DNA from: Citreimonas salinaria
GTDB taxonomy: Bacteria > Pseudomonadota > Alphaproteobacteria > Rhodobacterales > Rhodobacteraceae
Assembly: GCF_900107235.1 (NCBI RefSeq)
Contig: NZ_FNPF01000001.1
Span: forward strand, 62,001 to 126,000
Direction: 5' to 3'
DNA: 64,000 bases
Below are positions 8,696-34,263 of this stretch, one piece after another (positions within the stretch are counted from its first letter, which is position 1; each line of letters starts with the position of its first letter). Position numbers and translations under genes: made by a program. A model generated the notes under the pieces. It was not told the DNA's origin and did no database searches. It saw only the letters and a program-made list of their open reading frames with translations.

Positions 8696-10018
8696 ATGAA
8701 GATTGCGGTAATCGGGACGGGTTACGTGGGCCTGGTTTCCGGAGTGTGTTTTTCCGACTTCGGGCACGAGGTCGTCTGCGTGGACAAGGACTCGCGCAAG
8801 ATCGAGATGCTCGAGAAAGGCAAAGTGCCGATCTACGAGCCCGGACTCGACCGCTTGATGGAGCGCAACGTCGAGACGGGGCGCCTGTCCTTCACCATAG
8901 ACCTAAACGCGGCGATCGATGGTTCCGAGGCGGTATTCATCGCCGTCGGCACCCCCACCCGGCGCGGCGACGGTCATGCCGACCTGACCTACGTCATGGC
9001 CGCAGCTGAAGAGATTGCGAAGGCGGCGAAGGACTATGTCGTTATCGTCACGAAATCCACAGTACCGGTCGGCACCAACCGCAAGGTCGCCGAGGTGGTG
9101 CGTGCCGCGAACCCCGACCTTGATTTCGACGTCGCGTCGAACCCGGAATTCTTGCGCGAAGGCGCCGCGATCGACGATTTCATGAAGCCCGACCGTGTCG
9201 TCGTCGGCGTTGAAACCGATCGCGCCGCTGCCGTCATGGCAAGCATCTACCGCCCGCTCTACCTGCGCGAATTCCCGATCATCACCACCGATCTCGAATC
9301 CGCCGAGATGACGAAATACGCCGCCAACGCCTTTCTCGCCACCAAGATCACCTTCATCAACGAGATCGCCGCGCTGTGCGAGAAGGTCGGCGCGGACGTG
9401 AAACAGGTGGCGCGTGGCATGGGGCTCGACAACCGGATTGGCAACAAGTTCCTGCACGCAGGGCCCGGCTACGGCGGTTCGTGCTTTCCCAAGGACACCA
9501 AGGCGTTGGCCCGCACCGCGCAGGAATATGCCTCGCCGATCCAGCTGGTCGAAACGGTCATCAAGGTCAACGAAGAGGTCAAGCGTCGCATGGTGGACAA
9601 GCTGCTGGATCTCTGCGACGGCAGCTTCAACGGCAAGTGCGTCGCCGTGCTGGGCGTGACCTTCAAGCCCAACACCGACGACATGCGCGATGCCCCTGCC
9701 CTGACCATCGTGCCGGCACTTGTCGGCGGCGGGTCCACGGTACGAGTCTGCGATCCCCAGGGCCGCCGCGAGGGCGAAGCACTGCTGCCCAGCGTCAGCT
9801 GGGAAGACGATCCCTACGCCGCCGCCGACGGCGCCGACCTAGTCGTAATACTGACTGAGTGGAACGAGTTCCGGGCCTTGGATCTCAGCGCGCTGGCAAA
9901 ACGGATGCGCACACCCCGGCTGGGCGACCTGCGCAACGTCTACACTGCCGAGGATGCGCAGAAGGCCGGTTTCCAAGCCTATGTCAGCATCGGCCGCGCC
10001 GACCTGATTCCTGGGTGA
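8696..10018 (+). CDS. ugd: UDP-glucose 6-dehydrogenase
   Basis: A 440-aa protein: MKIAVIGTGYVGLVSGVCFS, the substrate-gating TVPVGTNRKV, NPEFLREGAAIDDF, EMTKYAANAFLATKITFINE, and the catalytic cysteine motif GPGYGGSCFPKDT. It oxidises UDP-glucose to UDP-glucuronate with two NAD+. The UDP-glucuronate can be used directly or epimerised by the enzyme at 854-1867. The ATG at 8696 follows AAGGAAG; the longer open frame from 8606 lacks family similarity. A 172-bp gap to manC holds no other gene. Confidence 0.96.
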   Translation: MKIAVIGTGYVGLVSGVCFSDFGHEVVCVDKDSRKIEMLEKGKVPIYEPGLDRLMERNVETGRLSFTIDLNAAIDGSEAVFIAVGTPTRRGDGHADLTYVMAAAEEIAKAAKDYVVIVTKSTVPVGTNRKVAEVVRAANPDLDFDVASNPEFLREGAAIDDFMKPDRVVVGVETDRAAAVMASIYRPLYLREFPIITTDLESAEMTKYAANAFLATKITFINEIAALCEKVGADVKQVARGMGLDNRIGNKFLHAGPGYGGSCFPKDTKALARTAQEYASPIQLVETVIKVNEEVKRRMVDKLLDLCDGSFNGKCVAVLGVTFKPNTDDMRDAPALTIVPALVGGGSTVRVCDPQGRREGEALLPSVSWEDDPYAAADGADLVVILTEWNEFRALDLSALAKRMRTPRLGDLRNVYTAEDAQKAGFQAYVSIGRADLIPG

Positions 10019-10028
10019 CGGCAGTGGT

Positions 10029-10050
10029 CGCGACGATTCTCCCCGTCGCG
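10029..10050. terminator. Hairpin between ugd and galE (possible weak terminator or mRNA stability element)
   Basis: Inverted repeat CGCGACG / CGTCGCG (7-bp stem) with an 8-nt loop, starting 11 nt after the ugd stop. There is no T-run, so termination is uncertain. Confidence 0.35.
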
Positions 10051-10114
10051 GCACCCCCGCGGCGCCTCGCCCGGCCCGGCCGGAACCGAAGCAGAAGAAC
10101 ATGGATGTGCGGCT

Positions 10115-11149
10115 ATGCCGAATGACGAGAAACCAGTGCTGGTCACCGGTGGCGCCGGATATATCGGCAGCCATACGTGCAAGGCGCTCGCCGCTGCGGG
10201 CTACACGCCGATCACCTACGACTCGCTGTGTCGCGGCAACGCGTGGGCGGTCCGCTACGGTCCGCTCGAGGTCGGCGACCTGATGGACGGGGAACGGCTG
10301 CGCGACGTGATCCACAAACACGCGCCGATCGGCGTGATCCACTTCGCGGCCTTCTCGTACGTCGGAGAGTCGACGGGCGATCCGCTGCTGTACTACCGCA
10401 ACAATGTCGCCGGCACCGCAACGCTGCTGCGTGCCATGCAGGTCGAAGGGATCAAGCGCTTCGTCTTCTCATCGACCTGCGCGACCTACGGCACGCCCGA
10501 ACGAACCCCGATCGACGAGGACTGCCCGCAACGCCCGATCAACCCCTATGGCCACAGCAAGCTGATGGTCGAACAGATCATGAGGGACTGCGCCCGGGCG
10601 GGACATCTGGACGCCATCGCGCTGCGGTATTTCAACGCCGCCGGCGCCGACGCCGCGGCTGAGATAGGCGAGGCGCACAACCCGGAAACGCACCTGATCC
10701 CGCTGGCTCTCGGCGCCGCGAAGGGCACCTGTCCGCCGCTGACGGTCTTCGGCGACGACCACGATACGCCCGACGGAACCTGCATCCGGGACTACATCCA
10801 TGTTTCGGACCTTTCCGATGCCCATGTGGCGGCGCTGGCGCGGACCGGAAAAGGGCCGGGTTTCGACGCGCTCAACCTAGGGACGGGAACCGGCGTTTCC
10901 GTGAGAGACGTGATCGATATGACGCGCGAGATCACTGGCCGCGAAGTGCCTCATAGCTACGGACCACGGCGCAAAGGCGATCCCTCCGCGCTGGTCGCGG
11001 ACCCGTCGCGTGCGTTCGCGACTCTGGACTGGAAGCCGTCCCACTCGGACCTTAGCAACATCCTTCAAACTGCATGGGCGTGGATGGAACGTGAACGACG
11101 GATGCCGCCGACGACTCGGCTGGCTCAGGCTGCCAAGGGCGCGCGATAG
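10115..11149 (+). CDS. galE: UDP-glucose 4-epimerase
   Basis: A 344-aa GalE-type SDR: PVLVTGGAGYIGSHTCKALA, HFAAFSYVGES, FSSTCATYG, NPYGHSKLMVEQI (Y-x3-K), LRYFNAAGAD, and DGTCIRDYIHVSDLSDAHV. The YFNAAGA and IRDYIHV blocks separate GalE from the other SDRs in this locus. It interconverts UDP-glucose and UDP-galactose. It is the last gene of the sugar-nucleotide run that begins at gmd; the DNA downstream is decayed. Confidence 0.94.
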   Translation: MPNDEKPVLVTGGAGYIGSHTCKALAAAGYTPITYDSLCRGNAWAVRYGPLEVGDLMDGERLRDVIHKHAPIGVIHFAAFSYVGESTGDPLLYYRNNVAGTATLLRAMQVEGIKRFVFSSTCATYGTPERTPIDEDCPQRPINPYGHSKLMVEQIMRDCARAGHLDAIALRYFNAAGADAAAEIGEAHNPETHLIPLALGAAKGTCPPLTVFGDDHDTPDGTCIRDYIHVSDLSDAHVAALARTGKGPGFDALNLGTGTGVSVRDVIDMTREITGREVPHSYGPRRKGDPSALVADPSRAFATLDWKPSHSDLSNILQTAWAWMERERRMPPTTRLAQAAKGAR

Positions 11150-12122: not shown

Positions 12123-13061
12123 ATGGATGCGCTAGTAGGACATACGGGCTTCGTCGGAAGCACGCTTCGTTCGCAGCATGGGTTCGACGCGCTCTTCAAC
12201 AGCTCCAACATAGACGAGATCGCGGACGGACCATTCGATGGCGTGGTCTGTGCTGCGGCGCCGGGCTCGATGTTCGAGGCCAACCGGTTTCCCGACAGAG
12301 ACCTGGAAAAGGTCGAAGGGTTGATCGAACGGCTCGATCGTGTGGCGACCAAGCGGTTCGTGCTCGTCTCGTCGATCGCGGTGCTCGAGGATTTCGCCGC
12401 CGGGCTGGACGAAACGACCACGCGGTTCCAGAACGAGCTGGCCTATGGCCGGCACCGTCGGCGGCTCGAGACTTTTTGCGCGGACCGTTTCGACGACTGC
12501 CTCATCCTGCGGCTTCCAGCGCTTTTCGGCTCGGGCCTGCGGAAGAATTTCATGTTCGACCTGCTGAACCCCATGCCTTCGATGCTGACCGAAGGTCGAT
12601 ACGCCGGGATCCTTGGGGTCGACGAGGCGATCGCGGGCTATTATCGGCACGACCCAGAGTCCGGGATGTACCACCTCGACCGCGCGTCCTACGACCGCGG
12701 CAAGCGGCGGCCGGACATGGACGCGGCCGTGAAGGCAGCGGGACTGTCGGCGATCCAGTTCCACGCGCCCGACAGCACCCACCAGTTCTACGACACCAGC
12801 CGCCTGTGGTCCGATATCGAGCTCGCGACGCAGCACGGGCTACCCTTGGTGCACTTGGCGACCGAACCGGTGCGTGTCGGCGCGATCTACGAACGCTTGG
12901 CCAAGGAAGCGATGCCGGCGACCGGCGCGAAGGTGCATCACGAGGACATGCGCACGGTCCACGCCGACCTGTGGAACAAGTCGGGCCCGTACCTGATGGA
13001 CGGCGACGAGGTGATGATGCGGCTGGCGGCGTTCCACACCGCCGCAACGGTGGCGCGGTGA
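12123..13061 (+). CDS. NAD(P)-binding Rossmann sugar dehydrogenase/epimerase, cassette gene 1
   Basis: A 312-aa protein starting MDALVGHTGFVGSTLRSQHG, a short-form GxxGxxG dinucleotide fold, with FVLVSSIAVLEDF and a possible active-site Y in NELAYGRHRRRLE. It resembles atypical SDRs (sugar-nucleotide reductase/epimerase-like) but matches no named enzyme. The ATG at 12123 is preferred; the frame runs back to 11928 through the riboswitch and metK scrap, which is not protein-like. Its stop overlaps the next gene (GTGA). It is the first of seven same-strand genes, six of which overlap by 4 nt, and probably makes or reduces the special sugar of this cassette. Confidence 0.7.
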   Translation: MDALVGHTGFVGSTLRSQHGFDALFNSSNIDEIADGPFDGVVCAAAPGSMFEANRFPDRDLEKVEGLIERLDRVATKRFVLVSSIAVLEDFAAGLDETTTRFQNELAYGRHRRRLETFCADRFDDCLILRLPALFGSGLRKNFMFDLLNPMPSMLTEGRYAGILGVDEAIAGYYRHDPESGMYHLDRASYDRGKRRPDMDAAVKAAGLSAIQFHAPDSTHQFYDTSRLWSDIELATQHGLPLVHLATEPVRVGAIYERLAKEAMPATGAKVHHEDMRTVHADLWNKSGPYLMDGDEVMMRLAAFHTAATVAR

Positions 13062-13897
13062 TTCCTGCCATTTCGAATATCGCGTGGTCGCCGGACCAGC
13101 GCGCCGAAGCCTACGACCTGATGGCCGGGTGCGGGGTCACGGGTCTTGAGATCGCGCCGGGCCTGTTCTTCCATTCCGCCGCCGATCCCTTCGTTCCCGA
13201 TGCCGCCGAAGCGCGCCGTGCGATGTCCGAGGCCGAAAGCCGCGGGCTTCGGCTCGTGTCAATGCAGTCGCTGCTGTTCGGCGTCGAAGGCGCGGCGCTG
13301 TTCGGCAATGCCGAGGCGCGCGAAACGTTCGAGCACGGCATGACGCGGGCGATCGGACTGGCCGGGCGGTTCGACATTCCCAACATGGTCTTCGGATCGC
13401 CGCGCCAGCGCTGTATCCCCGAAGGAATGACGCCCGGCCCCGCGCAAGAGCGCGCGATCGACACGTTCCGGCGCTTGGGCGACCGCGCCGAACGCGCCGG
13501 AACGGTCATCACGGTCGAGGCGAATCCGGCGCGTTACGGCACGAACTTCCTCAACACCTTCGACGAGGCCGCCGATTTCGTGGCGCGGGTGGATCACCCG
13601 CGGATTCGCATGATCCTCGACATGGGCGCCATGCACCTGAACGAGCAGATCGGGCTCGCGGCCGATCGGGCCCGGGACCATTCGGGCCGGATCCACCACG
13701 TCCATGTCAGCGAGCCGCATCTGGCCCCCGCCCCGGCCGACATCGCCCCCCTGTCCCGTGTGCTGGACGCTCTTTCCGATTCAGGCTACGAGGGAGCAGT
13801 TTCTGTAGAGATGGCGCGTTCCGACGGCGGGCTGACGGCCGTGAAGGAAAGTCTGGTGAAACTTGCGCTGGCCATTTCGGGGAGGGCCCCGGCATGA
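13058..13897 (+). CDS. Sugar phosphate isomerase/epimerase (AP-endonuclease-2-like TIM barrel), cassette gene 2
   Basis: A 279-aa xylose-isomerase-like TIM barrel beginning with GTG: (M)IPAISNIAWSPDQRAEAYDL. Metal-ligand-type motifs are present: VITVEANPARYGTNF (E on a strand end), IRMILDMGAMH (D), HHVHVSEPHL (H and E), and GYEGAVSVEM. These are the four strand-end acidic or histidine positions of sugar phosphate isomerases. It is coupled to the previous gene by GTGA and to the next by ATGA. The substrate is unknown; it is probably an isomerase or epimerase for the precursor of the sugar attached by the downstream transferases. Confidence 0.8.
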   Translation: MIPAISNIAWSPDQRAEAYDLMAGCGVTGLEIAPGLFFHSAADPFVPDAAEARRAMSEAESRGLRLVSMQSLLFGVEGAALFGNAEARETFEHGMTRAIGLAGRFDIPNMVFGSPRQRCIPEGMTPGPAQERAIDTFRRLGDRAERAGTVITVEANPARYGTNFLNTFDEAADFVARVDHPRIRMILDMGAMHLNEQIGLAADRARDHSGRIHHVHVSEPHLAPAPADIAPLSRVLDALSDSGYEGAVSVEMARSDGGLTAVKESLVKLALAISGRAPA

Positions 13898-14919
13898 CGA
13901 CCCATCTTCGGACTGCCGATGTTGTGGCGCGCCAGGATGTCCTGTTGTCGGTGTGTCTTGCGGATCTGCCCCAGACCAAAGCGGCGCATCGCGCCGTGCG
14001 CGAATTTGCGCGCACCCTGGACGCCCGCTTCAGGTTCCGCGAAATCATCCTGATCGCGGACGAGGACCGGCGCGAAGCTTTCCTGCCCCTGGTGCGGGAT
14101 GTTCCGAACGTGCGCCTGTTCCTGGTGCGGTCGGGTCTGGAACATTATGAACGCAGGGTCATTGCGGCGGAAGAGGCGATCGGCGACGTCATCCTGATGG
14201 CGAATGCGGCCGAACTGGCCAGCATCGATGCCCTGAGGATGATCGAGCGTGCGGCCGACGAAGGTTTGTTGATCGTGGGCCTGCGGCCGGAGCAAGCCAG
14301 CCTTGGCCGGATCGTATCGGCCCCCGTTGCCGCGCTTGGACATGCCGCGGGCTTCAAGGTGGGCGTTCGCGACATGCAGACTATGGCGGTGCCGCGAACG
14401 TTGCTGAACCAGATCCTCAGCCACGCCCACCCCGAGCTTGCCCTTCGGTTCCCGCCGCGCGACACGCGACTGCCCTTGGGTTTCGAGACGGTCAGGGAGG
14501 GCATGGTTCCGGCGCATGCTCCGGGACAGCTGCGCCGCCGCCTCATGCTCATCGACAAGCTTCTGGTACATCTGGCGCCAAGAGTGCTTCTGCTGGTGAC
14601 TCTTTCTTCGGGACTGCTCAGCCTGCTGGGGCTGGCCTACATCTTTTACGTCCTCGGCGTCTGGGTGTTCGTCTCCGACATCGAGCCGGGCTGGTTGACG
14701 ATCTCGGCCATGCAGGGGTTCATCGCGGGGTTCATGGGTCTCGCCGTGCTCGGGCTCAGCCTGGGGCTTCAGCATCTGCTCGCGCTGATGCGGAACGACC
14801 GACTGGACAGTGTTACCGAAGAGGTCGCCAAGGTCGATCTGTTCCAGCAGGTTGCTCATGAACTGAACGTCGACCTGAACGACGAGGCCACCACGTCGGG
14901 CACGGCCGGGAACCGATGA
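13894..14919 (+). CDS. Degenerate GT2-like membrane-anchored protein (pseudo-glycosyltransferase), cassette gene 3
   Basis: A 341-aa protein with the layout of GtrB/DPM1-type transferases: an N-terminal GT-A-like half (LLSVCLADLPQTKAAH, REIILIADED) and two C-terminal membrane segments at roughly residues 228-256 and 270-292. At the position where active enzymes have D-x-D (GDxVIVMDADLQ) this one reads GDVILMANAAELASID, so the metal-binding aspartates appear to be absent. It may act as a scaffold or regulator for the active GT2 at 16450. It overlaps both neighbours by 4 nt. Confidence 0.65.
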   Translation: MTTHLRTADVVARQDVLLSVCLADLPQTKAAHRAVREFARTLDARFRFREIILIADEDRREAFLPLVRDVPNVRLFLVRSGLEHYERRVIAAEEAIGDVILMANAAELASIDALRMIERAADEGLLIVGLRPEQASLGRIVSAPVAALGHAAGFKVGVRDMQTMAVPRTLLNQILSHAHPELALRFPPRDTRLPLGFETVREGMVPAHAPGQLRRRLMLIDKLLVHLAPRVLLLVTLSSGLLSLLGLAYIFYVLGVWVFVSDIEPGWLTISAMQGFIAGFMGLAVLGLSLGLQHLLALMRNDRLDSVTEEVAKVDLFQQVAHELNVDLNDEATTSGTAGNR

Positions 14920-16058
14920 CCGTTTCCGATCGGACCCATGACATCTTGATCGTCGGTGGCGGGTTCTACGGATGTTGCCTCGCACTGTTCATGCGTTCGC
15001 TGTCGCTGCGGGTCCTTCTCGTCGAAAGCGAGGAAACCTTGATGCACCGAGCGTCCCGCATCAACCAGGCCCGCATCCACACCGGTTTCCACTATCCGCG
15101 CTCGGCCTTGACGGCGATCCGGTCGATGGCGCTGCACCACCGTTTCATGGCCGATTTTTCCGAAGCGGTCGTCGATGACTTCCAGATGCTCTACGCGATC
15201 TCGCGGCAGCGCTCGAAGGTATCGGCAAAGCGCTTCTACCGGATGTTCGAGGAAATGGGCGCGCCGATCCGTCCGGCCTCGGCCGCACAGGCGGCGCTTT
15301 TCGACGACACGCGGGTGGAAGGAGTGTTCGCCTGCACCGAAACCGCGTTCGACTATACGATCTTGCGCCAGTTGCTGAGTGAGCGGCTTGCTCGCGGGGG
15401 GGTGACCGTCATGACCGGAACGCAGGTCACGGCGCTGGCCGACGGGCCCGAGCGGGTGGTGGCCGGCCTTTCCACGGGGGCCGAGGTGACGGCCGCCTAC
15501 GCGTTCAACGTCACGTATTCTAGGATCAACGCCGTTCTCGACATGGCCGGACTGCCACGGGCGCCCCTGAAACACGAACTGGCCGAACTGGCCCTTGTCG
15601 ATCCGCCCGAGGAGCTGCGGGGCTACGCGATCACGCTGATGGACGGCCCGTTCTTTTCCTTCACCCCCTTCCCGGCGGAAAATACCTACTGCCTGACCCA
15701 TGTCCGCTACACGCCGCACGAAAGCTGGAAGGACGACGAGCCCGAGGTTCACCTCGCCGAGCCGCAGGCGCGGGACACGCAGGTCCGCCACATGATCAAC
15801 GACGGGAAACGCTATCTCCCGAGCCTGGCGCGCGCGACCTACAAGCACTCGTTCTACGAGGTGAAGACCGTGCTGATGAAGAACGAGCGCGACGACGGGC
15901 GACCGATCCTGTTCCAGCGGAATCCGGCCGGAAGCCGCGTCATCTCGATCCTCGGAGGCAAGGTCGACAACATCTACGACCTGTTCGACCTCGTCCGCCA
16001 GACCAGCCCGGAATTCGCGGGCGCCACGATCGCGCCGGTCCGGGGCAGCGCGGTATGA
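14916..16058 (+). CDS. FAD-dependent oxidoreductase (DAO/LhgO-like), cassette gene 4
   Basis: A 380-aa flavoprotein: HDILIVGGGFYGCCLALFMR (FAD-binding GxGxxG near residue 13), E at the end of the second strand (LLVESEE), and INQARIHTGFHYPRSALTA, a block shared with LhgO-like oxidoreductases that bind a 2-hydroxyacid-like substrate. ISILGGKVDNIYDLFDLV near the C-terminus resembles the flavin-closing segment. Oxidation of a sugar or hydroxyacid substituent is likely. Its place inside a glycosyltransfer cassette is unusual. It is coupled at both ends by ATGA overlaps. Confidence 0.78.
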   Translation: MTVSDRTHDILIVGGGFYGCCLALFMRSLSLRVLLVESEETLMHRASRINQARIHTGFHYPRSALTAIRSMALHHRFMADFSEAVVDDFQMLYAISRQRSKVSAKRFYRMFEEMGAPIRPASAAQAALFDDTRVEGVFACTETAFDYTILRQLLSERLARGGVTVMTGTQVTALADGPERVVAGLSTGAEVTAAYAFNVTYSRINAVLDMAGLPRAPLKHELAELALVDPPEELRGYAITLMDGPFFSFTPFPAENTYCLTHVRYTPHESWKDDEPEVHLAEPQARDTQVRHMINDGKRYLPSLARATYKHSFYEVKTVLMKNERDDGRPILFQRNPAGSRVISILGGKVDNIYDLFDLVRQTSPEFAGATIAPVRGSAV

Positions 16059-16453
16059 CGGTCGCCGGGCGCTTCCTTGCGGTGGCGGTGGTGGGCGTGG
16101 TGCTCGACATCGCCGTGGCCTACCTGTTGGCCGACCAGCTTGGCCTAGCCCTGTGGTTGGCGGCGGCGATTGGCTTTGTGACCGCCGCGTCGGTCAATTA
16201 CGTCATTCACGAAACCTGGACCTTCGGATCGGGCGGATCGCTGTCCCTGCAGCGTGGGGGGCAGTATCTCACGACCTGTACCGTCGCGCTTGGCGTGCGA
16301 TTGGCAGCGGTCGCCGGGCTGAGCGCGCTCGACGCAGGACTGCCGGAACTCGTCATCTTGATCTGCGGCGCGGCAGCGTCCTTCGCCGTCAATTACAACG
16401 TGAGCCGCTACCTGATCTTTTCAGCCGATTCGACGAAGAAGGGCAGCCGATGA
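16055..16453 (+). CDS. GtrA family membrane protein, cassette gene 5
   Basis: A 132-aa protein with four predicted membrane helices: residues about 5-25, 31-52, 68-90 and 98-120. The FLAVAVVGVVLDIAVAYLLA start, NYVIHETWTF between helices 2 and 3, and FAVNYNVSRYLIF at the end are the GtrA signature. GtrA-like proteins are thought to help flip polyprenyl-phosphate-linked sugars across the inner membrane, together with a GtrB transferase. It overlaps the flanking genes by 4 nt. Confidence 0.88.
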   Translation: MTVAGRFLAVAVVGVVLDIAVAYLLADQLGLALWLAAAIGFVTAASVNYVIHETWTFGSGGSLSLQRGGQYLTTCTVALGVRLAAVAGLSALDAGLPELVILICGAAASFAVNYNVSRYLIFSADSTKKGSR

Positions 16454-17280
16454 ACCGACCGGAACCAAGCGCTCCCGTCACCCAGCACACAGGCCGGGAA
16501 GTTCCGACCTTCGAGGTCCGAACCTTCGCGGAAAAGCGGCACGCCTACGCCCTGGTGATCCCCGTCATCAACGAAGGCGACCGGGTCCGCGACCAGCTGG
16601 AGCGGATCCGCGATCTGGCGCCCGAGGTGGACGTAATCGTGGCCGACGGCGGATCGACCGATGGATCGCTCGACGATGCGTTCGTGTCTGGCGCCGGCGT
16701 GCGGGCCGTCCTCGTCAAGATCGGTCCGGGCAAGCTGAGCGCGCAATTGCGGATGGCCTATGCGTGGTGCCTCGACGAAGGGTATCGCGGTATCATTACG
16801 GTGGACGGGAACGGAAAGGACGGGGTCGATGCGATCCCCCAGTTCATCGCCAAACTCGACAAGGGCTATGACTATGTGCAGGGATCACGGTATCTGCCGG
16901 GGGGGGCGGCGATCAACACGCCGACCGAGCGAACCATTGCCAACCGGCTGATCCACGCCCCGCTTCTGAGCCTTGCCGGCCGCCGCTGGCTGACGGACAC
17001 GACAAACGGATTTCGCGCATACTCGGCCCGTTATCTGCTCGACGAGAACGTGCAACCGTTCCGCGGCATCTTCCAGAACTACGAGCTTCTCTTCTACCTC
17101 ACAGTGCGCGCGGGCCAGCTCGGCTATCGGGTCGCCCAAGTTCCCGTGCGCCGCGTCTACCCTGGGAAAACGGCTGTCCCGACCAAGATAACCGGGGTCG
17201 GCGGAAAGCTCCGGGTTCTGCGCCAGACAATCGATGCCGCGCGGGGCAAGTATGCCCCGCCTCGCGAGACTCGAAGCTAG
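16450..17280 (+). CDS. Glycosyltransferase family 2 (polyprenyl-phosphate sugar transferase-like), cassette gene 6
   Basis: A 276-aa GT2: YALVIPVINEGDRVRDQLER, VIVADGGSTDGSLDD, GIITVDGNGKDGVDAIPQFI (metal site DGNGKD), YVQGSRYLPGG, and a C-terminal TDTTNGFRAYS block plus YRVAQVPVRRVYP, all typical of dolichol-phosphate-mannose-synthase-like enzymes. No C-terminal membrane segments are seen. It would load a sugar from a nucleotide donor onto undecaprenyl phosphate. The start ATG at 16450 overlaps the gtrA stop. Confidence 0.85.
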   Translation: MNRPEPSAPVTQHTGREVPTFEVRTFAEKRHAYALVIPVINEGDRVRDQLERIRDLAPEVDVIVADGGSTDGSLDDAFVSGAGVRAVLVKIGPGKLSAQLRMAYAWCLDEGYRGIITVDGNGKDGVDAIPQFIAKLDKGYDYVQGSRYLPGGAAINTPTERTIANRLIHAPLLSLAGRRWLTDTTNGFRAYSARYLLDENVQPFRGIFQNYELLFYLTVRAGQLGYRVAQVPVRRVYPGKTAVPTKITGVGGKLRVLRQTIDAARGKYAPPRETRS

Positions 17281-17289
17281 GGCCGTCTG

Positions 17290-18828
17290 ATGTCAACCAG
17301 TTCCGGGGACGGCTCTCCGAATCTTGCGCCAGCTGGAGTTCTGAGATCCGTGTGGACGTCTGACAATTTGGCTCGCTTGGCCCTGATCGTCCTAGTCCTG
17401 GTGTCGATCCTGCGGCTATCGCAAAGGTCGATCGGTCTCGACGAGGGAATGCTGCTGACGAACCTGTTCCATGCCGGCGGGCTGCAGGATCTGTTCGGTC
17501 CGATGCCGTTCTACGACCAGGCGCAGCCAGTGCTTGCCTCGGCGTTCCACCAGGCGATGCTGTTCGTGACCGAGGACGTCTGGGCGCTTCGAGTGATGTC
17601 GGCGATGGCGGTGGGGCTGTCGTCGGTGCTTTCGATCCGCGTCCTGAGGGCCGAGCGGGCGCCGTGGCTTGCCATTACGCTGGCTGCAGGAGCTTTCCTG
17701 GGGCCACTTGCCTATTATGCAACCGAGATCAAGCACTACGCGCTCGAACTCGTGCAGGCCTTCTTCCTAGTCTACACCTTCCACCTTTTCTATCAGCGGC
17801 GCATCACGCTTCAAGCTTTCGCCGTCATCGCGGCGATTTCTGCGTTCCTCGGCTTTTCCACGCTGATCCCCACTGTCCTGAGCATCGCGTTCTGCGTTGC
17901 TCTTCAACTTCGCACCAGCGGCACGAGCGCGGCGATGGTTCAGTGGCCCGGTCTTGCCGTCTCGGCCGTGCTCCTCGCCCTCAACTACCTTAGCCTCAAG
18001 TACTTGACGCGGGAACAGCTTGAGGTTCCGGCCTATGCTTCGGACGGGCTTCTTGCCGACCTGGGCGTTCTGGCCGTGGCGCTGGGCAGCGCCCACGGCG
18101 GGGTCATTTCGGTGATCGCGCTGGTGATCGCGCTGGTCTCGATCCTCGCGCGCCGCGGCTCTCGGTTCGCGGTCCGGTTGGGTCTGCTCTTCATCGCCTT
18201 CTGCGTTGCGATCCTGTTGGGTAAGATGACGGGCGTCTATCCGGTCATCAGCGCCCGGCATGTAATCTGGACGACGCCGTTCGCCCTGACGCTCGTGGGG
18301 CTGTTTCTGGCGACGGAACTGCAAGCCCGCGGTAAAACCCCGCTCGTTCTCGTCGTCGGCGGCCTGTGCTCGATCGCGGCGTTCTGGGAGACGGGCAGAA
18401 TCATGATCGACGACGGAGCCGTGGAATTCGCGGACAACGAGGCGCTTTACAGGCATCTCGCTTCGCTTCCCCCGCAGGAAATCGGTCTCTACCCCTACGC
18501 GGTGCCGTCGCTCGATTACTACGCCCGCCACATTTCTGGGCTGGAGCGTCACACGTATATTGGCCGACGCGTCTATCCCAGCGGCACGAGGTTCGATCAG
18601 GCGGAGTTCGACGGGCTGGCCGAGGGACTTGAGGGCATCGAGGGGTCGCGCCGCCTATACGTCGTTTCACACCTTCCGTCCTCGGTTGATCCCCCAGACG
18701 CCGGCACAAGGCGCGTGAACCGCCTGGAGGACGCGTTACGCGCGCGCGGCTGCGCGTGGAGCGAAGAGTTCGCGGGCCGGAGGGTCAGCCTGCTGATGGT
18801 CTACTGCCGTCCCGAACCGTCCCGCTGA
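17290..18828 (+). CDS. Polytopic GT-C-like membrane glycosyltransferase, cassette gene 7
   Basis: A 512-aa protein with about ten membrane segments between residues 30 and 370 and a soluble C-terminal part. The first extracytoplasmic loop carries RSIGLDEGMLLTN, matching the D-E motif of GT39/GT83-type transferases that use polyprenyl-phosphate sugars; AYYATEIKHYALEL is another GT-C-like segment. It probably transfers the flipped sugar to the polysaccharide or another periplasmic acceptor. It begins 9 nt after the GT2 gene and ends the cassette. Confidence 0.72.
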   Translation: MSTSSGDGSPNLAPAGVLRSVWTSDNLARLALIVLVLVSILRLSQRSIGLDEGMLLTNLFHAGGLQDLFGPMPFYDQAQPVLASAFHQAMLFVTEDVWALRVMSAMAVGLSSVLSIRVLRAERAPWLAITLAAGAFLGPLAYYATEIKHYALELVQAFFLVYTFHLFYQRRITLQAFAVIAAISAFLGFSTLIPTVLSIAFCVALQLRTSGTSAAMVQWPGLAVSAVLLALNYLSLKYLTREQLEVPAYASDGLLADLGVLAVALGSAHGGVISVIALVIALVSILARRGSRFAVRLGLLFIAFCVAILLGKMTGVYPVISARHVIWTTPFALTLVGLFLATELQARGKTPLVLVVGGLCSIAAFWETGRIMIDDGAVEFADNEALYRHLASLPPQEIGLYPYAVPSLDYYARHISGLERHTYIGRRVYPSGTRFDQAEFDGLAEGLEGIEGSRRLYVVSHLPSSVDPPDAGTRRVNRLEDALRARGCAWSEEFAGRRVSLLMVYCRPEPSR

Positions 18829-27779: not shown

Positions 27780-28801
27780 TCCGCCTGCTCCGCGACGCGC
27801 CGGTAAATTTGAGCATACCGTTCGGCCGCCAGCGACGGTGCGAACCGGTTCACGTTGAGCAAACCATCCGCCACCAGGCGCGGAACCAGGTCGGGCTCCT
27901 TCATCAGCCGCACGACAGCGGCGCGGATCGTGTCCGGATCCACGGGGTCCACCAGAAGCGCCGCATCCCCGGCGACTTCCCGCATCGGCGAGCGGTCGCT
28001 CGTGACAACGGGCCGACCGACCGACTGCGCCTCGATGATCGGCAGGCCGAACCCCTCGGACAGAGAGGGGAACATCAAGATGTCGGCCCGTGCATAGGCT
28101 TCGGCCAGTTCCGCGTCGGACAGGTCGAAGCGGGCATCGAGCGGGACGCCGAGCGCCCCGATCCGCGCGCGAAGCTCGTCGGGCAGCCGCCCGATGACGG
28201 CGAGCGTCACCGGCAGGTCGGCGACCGCTTCGGCCACACGGGCGATGTTCTTGTGCGCTTCCGTGCCGATCATCAGAAGACGGGGCCGCTGCATGTCCAG
28301 CGGACGCTCCGAGCGGGGCAACCTTTTCGACAGTGGGTTTTCGACGACTTCTATGCGGGCCGGGTCAAGGCGCAACCATTGTAGAAGTTGCGCCTTGCTT
28401 GTCTCGGACACGACCGTGATCGCCGCCGCATGTCGAACCGGCCACCACATCCAGAAGAGCCAAAGGATGAACCGCTTGATCCCGCGGCTGCGGTCTAGGA
28501 ACTCGCAGTCATGCACAGTCAGCACGGTCCGGCGGCGCGGCAGGGCAAGGGCCACGAAATGCGTGTCCCCGGTGACATGCGCAACGTCCGCTCCTCGCGC
28601 TGCGCGACGCGCGTGAAAAGCCGCACGAAGGCGGCGCAGGATGCCTTTGCTGACGTGGGGCGAGACGTCGTAGCTCGCCTCGATGTCGTCGGGCATGTGG
28701 TCGGCCACGGTGGTGAACACCGCTTCGACGCTGAAGCTGCGACCCTGCGGCGCACGCATCAGAAGCACGACTTTCAGCGGGTCCGCGACGGAGTGGGTCA
28801 T
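27776..28801 (-). CDS. Glycosyltransferase family 4
   Basis: A 341-aa GT-B protein: VLTVHDCEFLDRSRGIKRF, ITVVSETSKAQLL, IEVVENPL, LLMIGTEAHKNIARVAEAV, and the donor site FPSLSEGFGLPIIEAQSVGR with E-x7-E. It is the WbaZ/mannosyltransferase-like type of GT4 with a typical HNKN(L/I)-like EAHKNIAR segment. It overlaps the sulfotransferase gene upstream and the GT4 gene downstream by 4 nt each, so all three are translated together. Confidence 0.92.
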   Translation of the reverse strand: MTHSVADPLKVVLLMRAPQGRSFSVEAVFTTVADHMPDDIEASYDVSPHVSKGILRRLRAAFHARRAARGADVAHVTGDTHFVALALPRRRTVLTVHDCEFLDRSRGIKRFILWLFWMWWPVRHAAAITVVSETSKAQLLQWLRLDPARIEVVENPLSKRLPRSERPLDMQRPRLLMIGTEAHKNIARVAEAVADLPVTLAVIGRLPDELRARIGALGVPLDARFDLSDAELAEAYARADILMFPSLSEGFGLPIIEAQSVGRPVVTSDRSPMREVAGDAALLVDPVDPDTIRAAVVRLMKEPDLVPRLVADGLLNVNRFAPSLAAERYAQIYRRVAEQAE

Positions 28802-29688
28802 CGCGCGAGAGCCGGATCGGCGTCTGCTTGCTCGGGCCAGTGCCAGCGATCCGGATCGGCGCCGACACGGGACAGATAGGCGCAGCTCGGCCCCTCGAAC
28901 CGCTCGCGGAACCTGTCCCAGTCCGCGCTGGACCAGATCGGACGTGCAACCTTGTGCCGGGAGGAAATCAGCCCGCGTACGGGCCTTTTCAGCGCTTCCG
29001 GCAGCATGAGCCCGATGTCCGAACCCAACCGCGTTTCACGCAGCCAACGGATCACGGGCGGGAACCGGCGCGAATTCGCGGTCTGACCATGCCGCGCGTC
29101 CGTCTCGAAGGCGAAGTTGGGATCGACGCCCAGGAAACGGGTCACACGATCGAGAAGGGCGGCCGGATCGCTGGTCAGATCGGCATGGAACAACGGCAGG
29201 ATGCGGTCCGCGCCGAACCGTTCGGAATAAGCCTCGAACGTGCGCAGATACTGGTTCTTGTCCTCGTAGATCCGGTCCGTGCGCAGGAAGTCCGTGAACG
29301 AGATATTCTGCAGTGTGGTCATCTCCATCCAGTCGCTCTCGGTGCGGGCCTTGGGATGGCGGGTTATGTAGATGAACTTCGGGTCCTCCAGAGCGTCCGC
29401 GATGCGCTCTACCGTCCGCGGATAGAGCCCGAGCGCCGAGTAGGAGTTGCTTGCCTCGCCACGCGCAATCATGCCCCCGAGGCCGGCAAACAGCTTCGCA
29501 TACCAGTCCGACCCGCGGGCATAGATTTCGTCCATTGAGAAGAAGCTGGGCTCCTTGGACGGCGACATACCGACCTGCGGGTGCTGGTTCAAATACGCCC
29601 AGAGCGAGGTCGTGCCCGACTTTCCCGCCCCGATGATGAGAAAGTTTGGGAGCACCGCCCGGGCGTCAGGCGTGGATGTCGTCGCCAT
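28798..29688 (-). CDS. Sulfotransferase (sulfotransfer_1 type)
   Basis: A 296-aa protein from the ATG at 29688 with AAGGAGG 8 nt upstream. The 5'-phosphosulfate loop is NFLIIGAGKSGTTSLWAYLN, and the 3'-phosphate site lies around FIYITRHPKARTESDWMEM, where R and S contact PAPS. The KEPSFFSMD block after the P-loop is typical of bacterial carbohydrate (NodH/heparan-like) sulfotransferases. It is the first gene of the GT4/GT4/GT2 operon and suggests sulfation of the polysaccharide. Confidence 0.88.
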   Translation of the reverse strand: MATTSTPDARAVLPNFLIIGAGKSGTTSLWAYLNQHPQVGMSPSKEPSFFSMDEIYARGSDWYAKLFAGLGGMIARGEASNSYSALGLYPRTVERIADALEDPKFIYITRHPKARTESDWMEMTTLQNISFTDFLRTDRIYEDKNQYLRTFEAYSERFGADRILPLFHADLTSDPAALLDRVTRFLGVDPNFAFETDARHGQTANSRRFPPVIRWLRETRLGSDIGLMLPEALKRPVRGLISSRHKVARPIWSSADWDRFRERFEGPSCAYLSRVGADPDRWHWPEQADADPALAR

Positions 29689-29859
29689 CGAAGCGTTCCT
29701 CCTTGGTTCGGAACCACCTGGAATATCCGTTCTGTCTGCATGCCCTGCCGGCATTGTCGATGCCCTCGTTGGCCCCGATCTTCCCGGTCGTCAACGGGCA
29801 AAGCCTTTCCATCCTCGACCTAATTGAAAGACGGCATCCAGGTCCTGTCGGTCGCCGCT

Positions 29860-30924: not shown

Positions 30925-32444
30925 CTTGCCGGCTCGGGAAGGCCGTGGCCGGCGGAGCCGATGAACGACTTCTGCTGCACGGCGAGCTTCCCGATGATGC
31001 GATACATGACGACGATCAACCCGCAATACGCAAAGTAAATCGGCAGACCGGCGATGACCCCGCTTTGCAGGAAGGTTGTCGGTGCCAGCGCACCGATCTG
31101 GAGTGTCATCATCGCGGCGGGCAGGTAAAGAAATCGGCCGCGGCCCAACTGGTTGATCGTCAAGCGCGTCAGAAGCCCCATGACCAGCCCGAAAACTAGG
31201 CCGAACAGGACCACCCCGGTCCAGCCCATCTGCCAGTACCCGTCTCCGTATATCGACGCGCCGACCCGTGTTTCGGTGTTGCTGCTACCTCTGGCGGCCG
31301 CGTGGAACTCCAGCCCCGGGCTGGCCAGGATCGGCTTGTCCGGCCAGATGAACCGCGGCAGGAAATAGATCAGCGGGTTCTGGGTGAACGTCCCCGGCTG
31401 CCCCGAATCATACAGCTCCATCGCCGCGGTCTGGGCGCCCGAGTAGTTCAGCCGCAGCCACCACATTTCAACCCCCACGAGTACGGCAGGCAGATGGATG
31501 TCGAGTTCTTGATTTGTGAAGGTGAGATCGCCTAGGATTTCCATGCGTTCCCGTATACCCAAGACTTCGCCGTACTCGGCCGCCTCAAGCTCGCTCCATC
31601 GTGCGATGGTGTTGGTGTTCTGTAGTGCCGAAAAGATCACCAGCAGGGATAGGACCCAAGGGAACAGTCGCAAATAGGACCGATGGACGACGAAGCCTCC
31701 GAGCGCGGGAAGAAGCATGGTAAGAACCACGCTCTTCTTGGAAAATTCAGGAAAGGCGAGCAGCAGGTGCAAGGGCCAGATCAGCCAGAACAGCAGGGCG
31801 AACCTACGATCGCCCGTCGCCGCGATCATTGCGACCAGAGCGAAGCCGAGATCCGGCAGGTAACGCAGGTTCCGCAGCGTCCCCGGCACAAGGAAACTCG
31901 AGGTCCCATAGATCGATGGCATGATGATGAGATGCTTCAAGATCAGCCCGGTGACGAGGAAGATAATGGCGACGGCCCGCAGCGAAAGCAGCGGCGATCT
32001 GGTGCGAACCGACCTGAATCGCGGCAGGGCCAGGAGGATGCCCATGATCGTTGCCGCCAGACCGATGCAGGTCAAAAGGCTGGTGCCCAGGACTTCCTCG
32101 CCGGTAACGGCGTAGGTCGAATAGGCCTGGAACTGCCTGGTCACCTCACTGCCGAGGAATGTCACCATCGGCCCAAAGCCGAAGAACAGTGCCGAGGCCG
32201 CAGCGAAGGAAATCACCGGCGTGAAAAGCAGCAGCGTCTCGGCCCGACTCAGCCTGATCGCAGCCTGGACGCAGACGAAAACGATCGCGCCAAGCCCGGT
32301 CAGGCCGAGCGTACTGAGCGTCGCCTGGCCACACCTTCCCCCGCCGCAGGTCAGGTTTGCGACGATGAAGTAGGCCGCGACGACCAAGGTGCCCGCCATC
32401 CACTTGCTCAGGATGCCTCGGATATGCGGCCAGTCCTGTGTCAT
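30921..32444 (-). CDS. O-antigen/exopolysaccharide polymerase-like membrane protein (Wzy type)
   Basis: A 507-aa polytopic protein with 11-12 membrane segments. The long periplasmic loop near residues 300-400 contains NPLIYFLPRFIWPDKPILAS, the PR-(I/L)WPxKP signature of Wzy-like oligosaccharide repeat unit polymerases. The ATG at 32444 overlaps the sulfotransferase stop (ATGA). It would polymerise flipped repeat units in the periplasm under control of the Wzc-like protein at 19711. Wzy proteins are poorly conserved, so the call is from topology and this motif. Confidence 0.75.
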   Translation of the reverse strand: MTQDWPHIRGILSKWMAGTLVVAAYFIVANLTCGGGRCGQATLSTLGLTGLGAIVFVCVQAAIRLSRAETLLLFTPVISFAAASALFFGFGPMVTFLGSEVTRQFQAYSTYAVTGEEVLGTSLLTCIGLAATIMGILLALPRFRSVRTRSPLLSLRAVAIIFLVTGLILKHLIIMPSIYGTSSFLVPGTLRNLRYLPDLGFALVAMIAATGDRRFALLFWLIWPLHLLLAFPEFSKKSVVLTMLLPALGGFVVHRSYLRLFPWVLSLLVIFSALQNTNTIARWSELEAAEYGEVLGIRERMEILGDLTFTNQELDIHLPAVLVGVEMWWLRLNYSGAQTAAMELYDSGQPGTFTQNPLIYFLPRFIWPDKPILASPGLEFHAAARGSSNTETRVGASIYGDGYWQMGWTGVVLFGLVFGLVMGLLTRLTINQLGRGRFLYLPAAMMTLQIGALAPTTFLQSGVIAGLPIYFAYCGLIVVMYRIIGKLAVQQKSFIGSAGHGLPEPAR

Positions 32445-33298
32445 GCAGTGCCGGCGTCCTCGGTCTCGCGGATCCACGAGCGGTCGGTTTCGAAGCCCAT
32501 CAGTTCCAGCCCGTCCTGGGCGTGGCGGGCGAAAGCCTCGCGCGCGGCCTGGCTGTAGAGCGGACGCCATTCACCGACCTGGCTCTTGCGCAAGTGATAG
32601 GCATTCTCGGTGTTCTTCACGCGCGAGAAATCCAGTTCGTCGATGATCATCTCAAGCCGTGCACGGTCGACCGTCTGTCCCGAGACGCGCTCGAACAATG
32701 GCGCGAGCGTCTCGAACGGCGTCTGCTTCAGGTCCTCGAAAAGCAGGCGCGGCAGATCCATCGCCTCGGCGCGGCGGACATGGTCGGCCCAGTTCATCGC
32801 GCTGAACCTCTTTTCCGTGAAATACCATTCGATAAAGGCCGGCAATTGCTCGCGCGCCTTCGTCTTGTTGAAGACGACGCCGCTGGCGGCCTCGAAAGCC
32901 TTCAATGGGCGGCTGTCGTTGGGGTTCACCAGCTTAAAATAGCGCGAGACGATGGCGTCGCGCCCGTCTCGCGTGATGTAGAGCGTCCTTGCCCGCGCTG
33001 CGCGGGTATCCACGAAGCGGTGCAGGTGGAACACGTGAGGCCGCAGCGTCGGCGTCAGCCGCGTCCAAGGCTCGAAGATCGGCAGATCGAAATAGCGCGA
33101 GGCAAGATGGCACAACCAGTTCGTCCCGGACGAGGGGAAGCCGTTGACGAAAAAGCTTCCTCGCGCGTCGAACTGCGCGGCATGCATCCAGACCGAGGGC
33201 CAATAGATCGACTGCTGCCTGCGGACCGTCAGCTGACGGGGCAGCCCGTTGTCCATCGACGTCACGAGGCGAGACAGCCTTGAGGCACTATCGGTCAT
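32441..33298 (-). CDS. Sulfotransferase
   Basis: A 285-aa protein: FFVNGFPSSGTNWLCHLASR is the PAPS 5'-loop (PSSGTNW in place of the usual KSGTTS/T), and LYITRDGRDAIVSRYFKLV is the 3'-phosphate site with R and S. WRPLYSQAAREAFARHAQDG near the C-terminus matches the conserved RKGxxG-like end region of sulfotransfer_1 proteins. The ATG at 33298 overlaps the next sulfotransferase by ATGA. It is the second of three complete sulfotransferases in this run and of a clearly different subtype. Confidence 0.85.
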   Translation of the reverse strand: MTDSASRLSRLVTSMDNGLPRQLTVRRQQSIYWPSVWMHAAQFDARGSFFVNGFPSSGTNWLCHLASRYFDLPIFEPWTRLTPTLRPHVFHLHRFVDTRAARARTLYITRDGRDAIVSRYFKLVNPNDSRPLKAFEAASGVVFNKTKAREQLPAFIEWYFTEKRFSAMNWADHVRRAEAMDLPRLLFEDLKQTPFETLAPLFERVSGQTVDRARLEMIIDELDFSRVKNTENAYHLRKSQVGEWRPLYSQAAREAFARHAQDGLELMGFETDRSWIRETEDAGTA

Positions 33299-34263
33299 GC
33301 GCCATGCTCCTGTATTCGTTGGGGGTCGGGGGCCTCCGGCCATCGGAAGTCGTCCCAAGGCAGCGAGCTTCGGCCAAGGGTGGAAGCGATCTTCCGGGCG
33401 TCGTCCAGCAGCGCGTCCGCGACCCGCTGCCTGAGTTCGGCCGACGGAGCGCCCGCACCGGGCTTGCTGTGGTTCAGCCGGTCCATTGCGCGCAGAACAC
33501 CCGTCGCTGGCGGGTTCAGACCCAGGCGAGACAGGCCCCGGACCACGGCGCGGCGCATGCGGCGACTGCCCCCCTGCAGGCGGGCCGAGCGGAAACCGAG
33601 TCGCGGATTGGCGACGTCGTATCTGGCCAGCTGATGCGGGGCGAGACCCAGAAAATCCAGCACCTCGGCGTAGGCGCGCGCGGGTGCCTGGCGCATCTCC
33701 TCCTCGAGGATCAGAACCTTCAGTCGATCGGGAGCGAAGACCTCGGCGTATCGCGCCAGGTGCTCACCGGGCTGGCCCCAGAAGTGATAATCCGTCAGAC
33801 GGTCACCTTCGCGAAGCGGTCCCTGATCCCAGGCAGTCTCAAAATCGACGCGGGGGTCGCGCCCCTCCCGCACGTTCTGGGCGTGCATCGCGATTGCCAG
33901 ATCGACCGGGTTCCGCAGGATGGCGATCAGCCGAACGCGGTCTCTCCGGGCAGCTAGGATGTCGAAGGCGCTCTGCGAATACAGGTACTTCGGGGTGGCG
34001 TCGCCAGTCAGCAGCCGGTCTGCCTCGGGCGGGCAGACTTTGGCGCGATACTCGTCCCAGCTGGTGATCGCGCCGGGCATTCCGGCCGTGTCGAAGACGT
34101 CATGCGAAAGAAAGTTGGGTTCCTTGATCGCAAGAAACGTGTCGGGATGCGCTCGGAGCCATGAAAACAGGCTCGTCGTGCCGCATTTCGGAGCGCCGAT
34201 CAGAAACAGATCGGGAAACCGGACAGTATCGGCGACCTCAACCAACGGGGACCACTCTTTCAC
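33295..34263 (-). CDS. Sulfotransferase
   Basis: A 322-aa protein starting with GTG at 34263. PAPS loop: DLFLIGAPKCGTTSLFSWLR; 3'-phosphate site: VRLIAILRNPVDLAIAMHAQ, where the usual serine position is A or M; KEPNFLSHDVFD follows the P-loop as in NodH-like enzymes. No ribosome binding site precedes the GTG: the upstream DNA is the tandem repeat at 34265-34338, so the transcript may be leaderless or the true start may be slightly downstream (TTG at 34245). It is first in the minus-strand operon of sulfotransferase, sulfotransferase, polymerase and glycosyltransferase genes. Confidence 0.84.
   Translation of the reverse strand: MKEWSPLVEVADTVRFPDLFLIGAPKCGTTSLFSWLRAHPDTFLAIKEPNFLSHDVFDTAGMPGAITSWDEYRAKVCPPEADRLLTGDATPKYLYSQSAFDILAARRDRVRLIAILRNPVDLAIAMHAQNVREGRDPRVDFETAWDQGPLREGDRLTDYHFWGQPGEHLARYAEVFAPDRLKVLILEEEMRQAPARAYAEVLDFLGLAPHQLARYDVANPRLGFRSARLQGGSRRMRRAVVRGLSRLGLNPPATGVLRAMDRLNHSKPGAGAPSAELRQRVADALLDDARKIASTLGRSSLPWDDFRWPEAPDPQRIQEHGA

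What the first reader, a model, noticed from the sequence alone, without database searches (positions are those of the whole stretch)
12123..18828. Seven-gene coupled cassette combining GtrA/GT2/GT-C glycosylation with an FAD oxidoreductase and two sugar-modifying enzymes
Six successive genes overlap by exactly 4 nt and the seventh follows by 9 nt. The order is Rossmann epimerase/dehydrogenase, TIM-barrel epimerase, pseudo-GT with membrane anchor, LhgO-like flavoprotein, GtrA, GT2, GT-C. GtrA/GT2/GT-C is the known plan for periplasmic glycosylation through undecaprenyl-phosphate sugars; adding three dedicated sugar enzymes and a dead transferase is not a standard set I recognise. It may build and attach a novel oxidised or epimerised sugar. 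This is my best candidate for an undescribed system.
Basis: partly seen in the sequence, partly recalled or inferred. Interest (0 to 1): 0.8.

Follow-up and report, generated by a model that had tools for sequence, protein, structure and literature searches.

The report
Lipid-linked sugar epimerisation and glycosylation cassette
A set of seven overlapping bacterial genes, found in recognisable form in distantly related bacteria, looks like a complete assembly line that reshapes a sugar by oxidising and re-reducing it and then attaches it outside the cell membrane; we found no description of it.

Summary
In detail: seven genes at 12123-18828, five successive 4-nt overlaps, then a 9-nt gap. The cassette is not a local accident. 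At the cut-offs used, the FAD enzyme and the SDR occur in the same 12 of 72,556 plasmids, and TIM-barrel, GT2 and pseudo-GT hits fall only inside those 12. Of 29 other loci found through the FAD protein (Alpha-, Gamma-, 'Delta'-proteobacteria, cyanobacteria), 27 have a pseudo-GT-like protein (25 clear), 26 a GT2 (23 clear) and 22 both SDR and TIM barrel nearby. The pseudo-GT is GtrB/ArnC-like with a membrane hairpin and lacks DxD in 27 of 27 aligned copies. The TIM barrel keeps the metal ligands of ketose 3-epimerases; the FAD enzyme has the DAO fold (GlpD among the best matches); the SDR has YxxxR. An SMR transporter replaces GtrA in two loci; fusions join pseudo-GT to GT2 and GT2 to GT-C. 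Best reading: a three-component (synthase, flippase, GT-C) glycosylation system with a built-in oxidise-epimerise-reduce relay, probably acting on the lipid-linked sugar, like DprE1/DprE2 but with unrelated enzymes. Reactions, the stage of action and the sugar are not shown. New variant of a known kind.

The parts
12123..13061 (+). EPI: extended SDR-type NAD(P) oxidoreductase, 312 aa, YxxxR in place of YxxxK; proposed keto-sugar reductase
   Evidence: PF01370; GxxGxxG and YGxxR in 24 of 24 aligned members
13058..13897 (+). TIM: xylose-isomerase-like TIM barrel, 279 aa, GTG start; proposed keto-sugar C-epimerase
   Evidence: PF01261; D-psicose/D-tagatose 3-epimerases; E154, D188, H214, E251 invariant in the 23 of 25 members that were aligned
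13894..14919 (+). PGT: pseudo-GtrB/ArnC, GT-A domain without DxD plus C-terminal membrane hairpin, 341 aa
   Evidence: no DxD in 27 of 27 aligned; 7 of 10 relatives match PF00535, 6 of them over the cut-off; best folds ArnC and GtrB
14916..16058 (+). FAD: DAO-fold flavoprotein, 380 aa; proposed sugar hydroxyl oxidase/dehydrogenase
   Evidence: PF01266; GlpD and other DAO-family folds
16055..16453 (+). GtrA-family membrane protein, proposed flippase, 132 aa; the only GtrA match in this genome
   Evidence: (PF04138)
16450..17280 (+). GT2: polyprenyl-phosphate glycosyltransferase-like, 276 aa, without a membrane hairpin of its own
   Evidence: PF00535; best NCBIfam are polyprenyl/dolichyl-phosphate transferases, all below cut-off
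17290..18828 (+). GTC: multi-pass membrane protein, 512 aa, with D51-E52 invariant among 8 relatives; proposed GT-C transferase
   Evidence: (five hydrophobic segments here, 7 or more in relatives); relatives fused to GT2 in L018 and L025

Best explanation
The cassette is a three-component extracytoplasmic glycosylation system with a built-in sugar-reshaping relay. GT2 (soluble, held at the membrane with the help of the pseudo-GtrB PGT) moves a common sugar from a nucleotide onto undecaprenyl phosphate. While the sugar is bound at the inner face of the membrane, the FAD enzyme oxidises one ring hydroxyl to a ketone, as GlpD does with a secondary alcohol next to a phosphate, passing electrons to quinone or oxygen. 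The metal-dependent TIM barrel epimerises (or shifts) the carbon next to the ketone through an enediolate, and the SDR reduces the ketone with NAD(P)H, giving an epimer. GtrA (an SMR protein in some relatives) flips the lipid-linked sugar and GT-C adds it to the exported, here probably sulfated, polysaccharide. The pseudo-GtrB is the membrane platform that presents the lipid-linked sugar to the relay. Shown: gene set, conservation, predicted folds, kept and lost active-site residues, fusions, flippase exchange. Inferred: every reaction, its order, the lipid-linked stage and the platform role.
For: Co-occurrence: FAD 12 and EPI 12 of 72,556 plasmid records, the same 12; TIM 11, GT2 10 and PGT 8 lie inside that set. 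In 385 genomes of the class, EPI is in 7, and all 7 have a FAD-family gene within about 5 kb of it. Of 29 other loci found through FAD, PGT-like 27 (25 clear), GT2 26 (23 clear), EPI with TIM 22; PGT is FAD's next cassette gene in 25. The best fold matches of PGT are enzymes that make lipid-linked sugars (ArnC, GtrB). Fusions: PGT-GT2 in one open frame and GT2-GTC (L018, L025). Flippase exchange GtrA to SMR. No kinase or nucleotidyltransferase recognised in the cassette. Distances correlate most among PGT, FAD and TIM (rho 0.76-0.80, 0 of 499 permutations as high). Precedent: DprE1/DprE2 (PMC11127046).
Against: No substrate or reaction is shown. FAD-EPI-TIM also occurs without PGT or GT2: G334 (no GT2 match at 1e-20 in the genome), next to a sugar ABC importer, and on an IS-broken Mesorhizobium plasmid, so the trio need not act on this GT2's product. 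In one search, 5 of 6 genomes with FAD-family genes had no GT2 match at 1e-20. Six of 29 loci lack both EPI and TIM near FAD (L005, L007, L030, L031, L049, L051; one on a short contig, one decayed). The PGT-like proteins of L030 and L031 score no better than ordinary GtrB-like paralogues, and the GT2s of L007, L029 and L031 score clearly lower than the rest. PGT stays where GT2 is fused to the membrane protein GTC, so anchoring alone cannot be its role. GT2 distances correlate less with EPI and PGT (rho 0.30, 0.35). No GtrA or SMR was recognised near FAD in 13 of 29 loci. GTC has no family or PDB match.
Confidence: 0.5

Rival explanations
1. The same oxidise-epimerise-reduce relay acts one step earlier, on a nucleotide sugar, and GT2 then loads the finished rare sugar onto undecaprenyl phosphate for flipping and transfer by GT-C.
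For: Trio found without GT2 and PGT in G334 and Mesorhizobium. A Pelagibacter FAD relative sits next to a Gfo/Idh oxidoreductase (divergently oriented) and near a GT17. Most sugar epimerisation for glycans is at nucleotide level (general knowledge). The same locus makes NDP-sugars (ugd, galE-like, gmd, manC).
Against: Does not explain the pseudo-GtrB next to FAD in 25 of 29 loci or the closer PGT-FAD than PGT-GT2 distance correlation; I recall no DAO-fold enzyme acting on NDP-sugars.
Confidence: 0.3
2. The FAD enzyme makes an oxidised end product (keto sugar or sugar acid) and SDR and TIM act elsewhere in the pathway, so the added sugar is oxidised rather than epimerised, one of the options the first reader named.
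For: Five loci keep FAD and a PGT-like protein without EPI and TIM nearby (L005, L007, L030, L031, L051).
Against: In the 7 genomes and 12 plasmid records that hold EPI, a FAD-family gene is always there too, and TIM keeps its four metal ligands, as a relay needs; a reductase is not needed if the oxidised form is the product (inference).
Confidence: 0.1
3. The trio is a YcjQRS-like module for interconverting imported or free glycosides, and only rides with glycosylation genes.
For: The G334 trio lies beside a DeoR regulator and a sugar ABC importer; the TIM barrel resembles free-ketose epimerases.
Against: GT2 and PGT are with it in most of the 29 loci, across phyla, and the annotated relatives show overlapping or abutting genes.
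Confidence: 0.06
4. A chance run of ordinary exopolysaccharide genes with no joint function.
For: The locus is a large exopolysaccharide cluster; 4-nt overlaps are common in operons (general knowledge).
Against: Strict co-occurrence and repeated order in distant taxa.
Confidence: 0.02

Closest known systems
Three-component Gtr systems (GtrA flippase, GtrB polyprenyl-phosphate glucosyltransferase, serotype-specific GT-C)
   Same: GtrA-family protein, polyprenyl-phosphate GT2 relative and multi-pass GT-C-like protein in one operon
   Different: Synthase split into a soluble GT2 and a pseudo-GtrB with the membrane hairpin; three extra sugar enzymes
Mycobacterial DprE1/DprE2 with Rv3789 and arabinosyltransferases
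   Same: FAD enzyme plus SDR with a small flippase and GT-C enzymes; lipid-linked sugar epimerised there (literature)
   Different: FAD enzyme here is DAO fold (PF01266), SDR has YxxxR, a TIM-barrel enzyme is added, and the donor synthase is GT2-like, not a PRPP-using enzyme
Citrobacter youngae O2 pentofuranose system (ORF12-15; PMC11127046, abstract, passages and first part of the Discussion read)
   Same: Three-component side-chain glycosylation with an auxiliary epimerase acting, as the authors argue, on the lipid-linked sugar
   Different: There a single SDR, a MATE flippase, a PRPP-using synthase and GT136; here a flavoprotein, TIM barrel and SDR, GtrA or SMR, and GT2 with pseudo-GtrB
E. 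coli YcjQ/YcjR/YcjS (roles taken from passages of PMC11543891; the primary paper was not held)
   Same: Dehydrogenase, TIM-barrel epimerase/isomerase and second dehydrogenase acting through a keto-glucoside
   Different: Those act on soluble glucosides in a carbohydrate import cluster; by recall both dehydrogenases are Gfo/Idh type

Membership tests
Three-component GtrA/GtrB/GT-C system | GtrA or SMR-type small flippase | tested here: met
   PF04138, 65 bits against cut-off 26; flipping itself not testable here
Three-component GtrA/GtrB/GT-C system | Polyprenyl-phosphate GT2 synthase | tested here: inconclusive
   PF00535 met; NCBIfam polyprenyl/dolichyl-phosphate transferases are the best hits but below cut-off; weak PDB matches to DPMS and ArnC
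Three-component GtrA/GtrB/GT-C system | Synthase with its own C-terminal membrane hairpin (GtrB type) | tested here: not met
   The GT2 frame shows fewer than two hydrophobic segments; the hairpin is on the DxD-less PGT
Three-component GtrA/GtrB/GT-C system | GT-C transferase | tested here: inconclusive
   Several hydrophobic segments, invariant D51-E52 in 8 aligned members, GT2 fusions of relatives; no Pfam or PDB match
DprE1 | FAD_binding_4 / ALO-type flavoprotein (family recalled) | tested here: not met
   PF01266 DAO instead; DAO-fold matches
DprE2 / classical extended SDR | YxxxK catalytic motif | tested here: not met
   YxxxR in 24 of 24 aligned members
Xylose-isomerase-like ketose 3-epimerases | PF01261 with Glu, Asp, His, Glu metal ligands | tested here: met
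   that these residues are the ligands is recalled
L-2-hydroxyglutarate oxidase LhgO | NCBIfam equivalog cut-off (299 bits) | tested here: not met
   23.4 bits
GtrB / ArnC synthases (for PGT) | GT-A fold plus membrane hairpin | tested here: met
   Foldseek best hits ArnC and GtrB, TM about 0.5 on a model of mean pLDDT 72
GtrB / ArnC synthases (for PGT) | DxD metal site | tested here: not met
   0 of 27 aligned copies have both Asp; ten keep the first

The most novel reading that the evidence does not exclude
A membrane-bound sugar-editing machine: a retired polyprenyl-phosphate synthase (pseudo-GtrB) serves as docking platform on which a flavoprotein, a TIM-barrel epimerase and an SDR oxidise, epimerise and re-reduce a sugar already attached to undecaprenyl phosphate, so that one operon can make a new activated sugar from a housekeeping one without new nucleotide-sugar chemistry, and then flip and attach it. 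It would be a convergent counterpart of DprE1/DprE2 that can reach double epimers.
Probability: 0.38. Interest if true: 0.78.

Novelty: new variant of a known kind. Interest (0 to 1): 0.62.

Why it matters
If right, it adds a second, unrelated solution to making rare sugars on the lipid carrier. The authors of the pentofuranose study wrote, after naming DprE1/DprE2 and their own ORF13, that they were not aware of other epimerases in O-polysaccharide side-chain systems (PMC11127046, Discussion). A three-enzyme relay could invert two neighbouring centres, which one oxidation and reduction cannot. It gives a genomic marker for polysaccharides carrying an unrecognised sugar in Alphaproteobacteria and cyanobacteria, and a DxD-less relative of GtrB kept with its partners across phyla offers a test case for pseudo-glycosyltransferase function.

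Tried and rejected
GT-C identity by family model or PDB sequence: none for P0007 or its 8-member profile. TM-rich neighbours in L017, L019, L028, L029, L044, L052, L053 and L002, L005, L006, L050, L031, L021, L018 were scanned with Pfam; apart from the GT2 half of L028 and an SMR/EamA match in L052 none had a hit, so I do not call them GT-C. L007 had a weak, sub-cut-off PMT_2 hit. In L020 (and by position in its near copy L046) the GTC place holds an exosortase.

The idea that the FAD family always has an NAD(P) oxidoreductase next to it is only partly borne out outside the cassette: in Pelagibacter L008 a clear Gfo/Idh gene lies next to it but divergently (L009 was not scanned), and in G1003 the Gfo/Idh match of the next gene is below the family's cut-off (22.7 against 24.0 bits).

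A first distance-correlation run (17 loci) used a fragment of the L021 GT2 and lost loci; it gave low GT2 values (rho 0.06 to 0.41) and was replaced (20 loci; also repeated without L029). L046, a near copy of L020, was dropped before both. Such correlations partly reflect shared descent of the host genomes.

Rows dropped elsewhere: two TIM sequences (L024, L028) by a length filter; from the DxD census two GtrB-like paralogues away from FAD (one with DxD, one without at the aligned columns) and one gap-only fragment; the Psychrobacter PGT was not in that alignment.

Sugar-acid (LhgO) reading of the flavoprotein: rejected (23 bits against 299). FAD sequence against PDB at 1e-6: nothing; the profile found L-alpha-glycerophosphate oxidase. 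EPI against PDB at 0.01: nothing. Phage collection at 1e-10: one partial match.

Literature: ten searches in open-licence PMC papers; five listed nothing, and no title or abstract start in the others is about this cassette. Subscription papers and preprints are outside that library, so 'not in print' is not claimed. PMC8563793 was searched for passages only, giving a TIM-barrel C-deglycosylation enzyme similar to sugar isomerases.
Full report
What is there. The window (64 kb of a 4.26-Mb, 62-contig genome, about 65% GC) carries a large exopolysaccharide locus: a GT2, GDP-mannose 4,6-dehydratase, ManC, UDP-glucose dehydrogenase and a GalE-like epimerase upstream of the cassette, and a Wzz/tyrosine-kinase protein, a methyltransferase, GT4 transferases, three sulfotransferases and a Wzx-like protein downstream. 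Within it, 12123-18828 holds seven genes read. Five successive junctions overlap by 4 nt and the seventh gene follows by 9 nt, exactly as reported. I call them EPI, TIM, PGT, FAD, GtrA, GT2 and GTC. The genome has one GtrA match, one FAD match at 1e-30 and one EPI match at 1e-10. A genome placed in the host's family has a contig of 127,298 bases, the length of Roseobacter litoralis plasmid pROLI127, so the host is probably a Roseobacter relative (inference).

It is a unit. The plasmid collection (72,556 records) was searched with five of the proteins, at thresholds chosen to leave out their wide superfamilies. FAD (1e-20) hits 12 records and EPI (1e-10) hits 12: the same 12. TIM (1e-15) hits 11, GT2 (1e-25) 10 and PGT (1e-5) 8, all inside those 12. 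The records missing for GT2 are the two Mesorhizobium plasmids; TIM misses Azospirillum, and PGT misses Azospirillum, Psychrobacter and Mesorhizobium; profiles do find TIM and PGT in Azospirillum and PGT in Psychrobacter. Three of the 12 are close Cereibacter relatives. In the host's class FAD occurs in 7 of 385 genomes and EPI in 7 of 385; five, own genome included, are shared. The two EPI-only genomes turned out to have a divergent FAD-family gene within a few kb of EPI. The two FAD-only genomes (G106, G171) have no EPI at that threshold. Within the order FAD occurs in 7 of 292 genomes (one copy truncated), and in the phylum sample in 6 of 398 at 1e-15: a patchy distribution.

Gene neighbourhoods. 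I collected 29 loci other than the window whose FAD protein is at least 30% identical to P0004: 6 of the 8, 6 of 6 others, 5 of 6 others (the sixth is the R. litoralis plasmid again), 4 of 5 others, and 8 of the 9 plasmid records fetched out of 12. Left out as more distant were two Pelagibacter loci, G1003 and one Mesorhizobium plasmid. One locus (L046) is nearly a copy of another (L020). In iterated profile searches a PGT-like protein lies near FAD in 27 of 29; in 25 it is clear, while in L030 and L031 it scores no better than ordinary GtrB-like paralogues. GT2 is near in 26; in 23 it is clear, while L007, L029 and L031 score much lower. EPI together with TIM is in 22 (L045 has TIM at a contig end). 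PGT is the next cassette gene to FAD in 25. GtrA is near in 14 (13 by profile, one by Pfam), and a small SMR/EamA protein is in the cassette of two (Psychrobacter and G973). GTC by profile is in seven.

What the parts are. TIM matches D-psicose and D-tagatose 3-epimerases, and the residues aligned with the metal ligands, E154, D188, H214 and E251, are invariant in the 23 of 25 members aligned (that these are the ligands is from memory). FAD has a confident model (mean pLDDT 82.7) whose best PDB matches are GlpD and amine or amino-acid oxidases of the DAO fold, and its profile finds L-alpha-glycerophosphate oxidase. EPI is an SDR with GxxGxxG and, in 24 of 24 aligned members, YxxxR in place of YxxxK. 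PGT has no Pfam match in the window, but of ten relatives scanned seven match PF00535, six above cut-off. Its model (pLDDT 71.9) matches ArnC and GtrB best (TM about 0.5). None of 27 aligned copies has both Asp of the DxD. So it is a degenerate polyprenyl-phosphate synthase that kept its membrane hairpin. GT2 resembles polyprenyl-phosphate and dolichyl-phosphate transferases below every cut-off and lacks a hairpin. GTC is multi-pass with an invariant Asp-Glu, the usual GT-C hallmark by memory.

Links between parts. In Psychrobacter plasmid pA22P4 one open frame from a GTG that overlaps the FAD stop runs through PGT into GT2; the gene table shows only the second half. In Cereibacter and Rhodobacter CZR27 GT2 is fused to GTC, and in L028 to an unclassified part with eight hydrophobic segments. 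Evolutionary distances over 20 loci correlate most strongly among PGT, FAD and TIM (rho 0.76-0.80, none of 499 permutations as high) and least for EPI-GT2 and PGT-GT2 (0.30 and 0.35, with 5 and 1 of 499 as high).

Beyond the cassette. FAD, EPI and TIM also occur without PGT or GT2: in G334, whose genome has no GT2 match at 1e-20, beside a TonB-like protein, a DeoR regulator and a sugar ABC importer; and on a Mesorhizobium plasmid broken by insertion sequences. Of the six genomes searched, five (G334, G345, G106, G171, G1003) gave no GT2 match. A more distant FAD relative in Pelagibacter lies next to a divergently read Gfo/Idh gene, and the one in G1003 is followed by a gene with a sub-cut-off Gfo/Idh match. 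So a flavin enzyme with an NAD(P)-dependent partner is a recurring theme, and the trio is separable from the glycosylation genes.

How it most likely works. A ketone-based relay explains the trio: FAD oxidises a hydroxyl, TIM epimerises next to the ketone, EPI reduces. YcjQ/R/S is a soluble example (passages of PMC11543891), and DprE1/DprE2 is the lipid-linked one (PMC11127046). A polyprenyl-phosphate synthase relative, flippase and GT-C candidate make up the delivery arm. The pseudo-GtrB next to FAD, and the absence of any recognised sugar-activating enzyme in the cassette, favour action on the lipid-linked sugar. The trio's separate life in G334 argues the other way. I put lipid-level action at about 0.5 and nucleotide-level at 0.3. 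The sugar cannot be named.

Verdict. Its parent plan is known, so it is a new variant of a known kind.

Noticed in passing
window 34425-37033 (-): A GMC-type FAD oxidoreductase abutting an aldo/keto reductase in the same exopolysaccharide locus: a second flavin-oxidation plus NADPH-reduction pair that could epimerise a sugar.
   Followed up: no
window 28798-29754, 32441-33358, 33295-34263 (-): Three sulfotransferase genes, suggesting a sulfated polysaccharide.
   Followed up: no
L020 11597-13249; L025 4105-5715: Exosortases annotated XrtD and XrtE beside the cassette; in L020 the exosortase occupies the GTC place.
   Followed up: partly
L023 5410-7188: The gene table of the plasmid shows only the second half of an open frame that holds both pseudo-GT and GT2; the listed start falls on an ATA codon.
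   Followed up: yes
L065 7994-10718: FAD-EPI-TIM trio alone beside a DeoR regulator and a sugar ABC importer, perhaps a catabolic use of the same chemistry.
   Followed up: partly
L044 10322-11890: An extra 522-residue protein with seven hydrophobic segments and no Pfam match between FAD and GtrA.
   Followed up: no
L049 about 9081-10857: A decayed copy: truncated FAD gene followed by GtrA and GT2.
   Followed up: no
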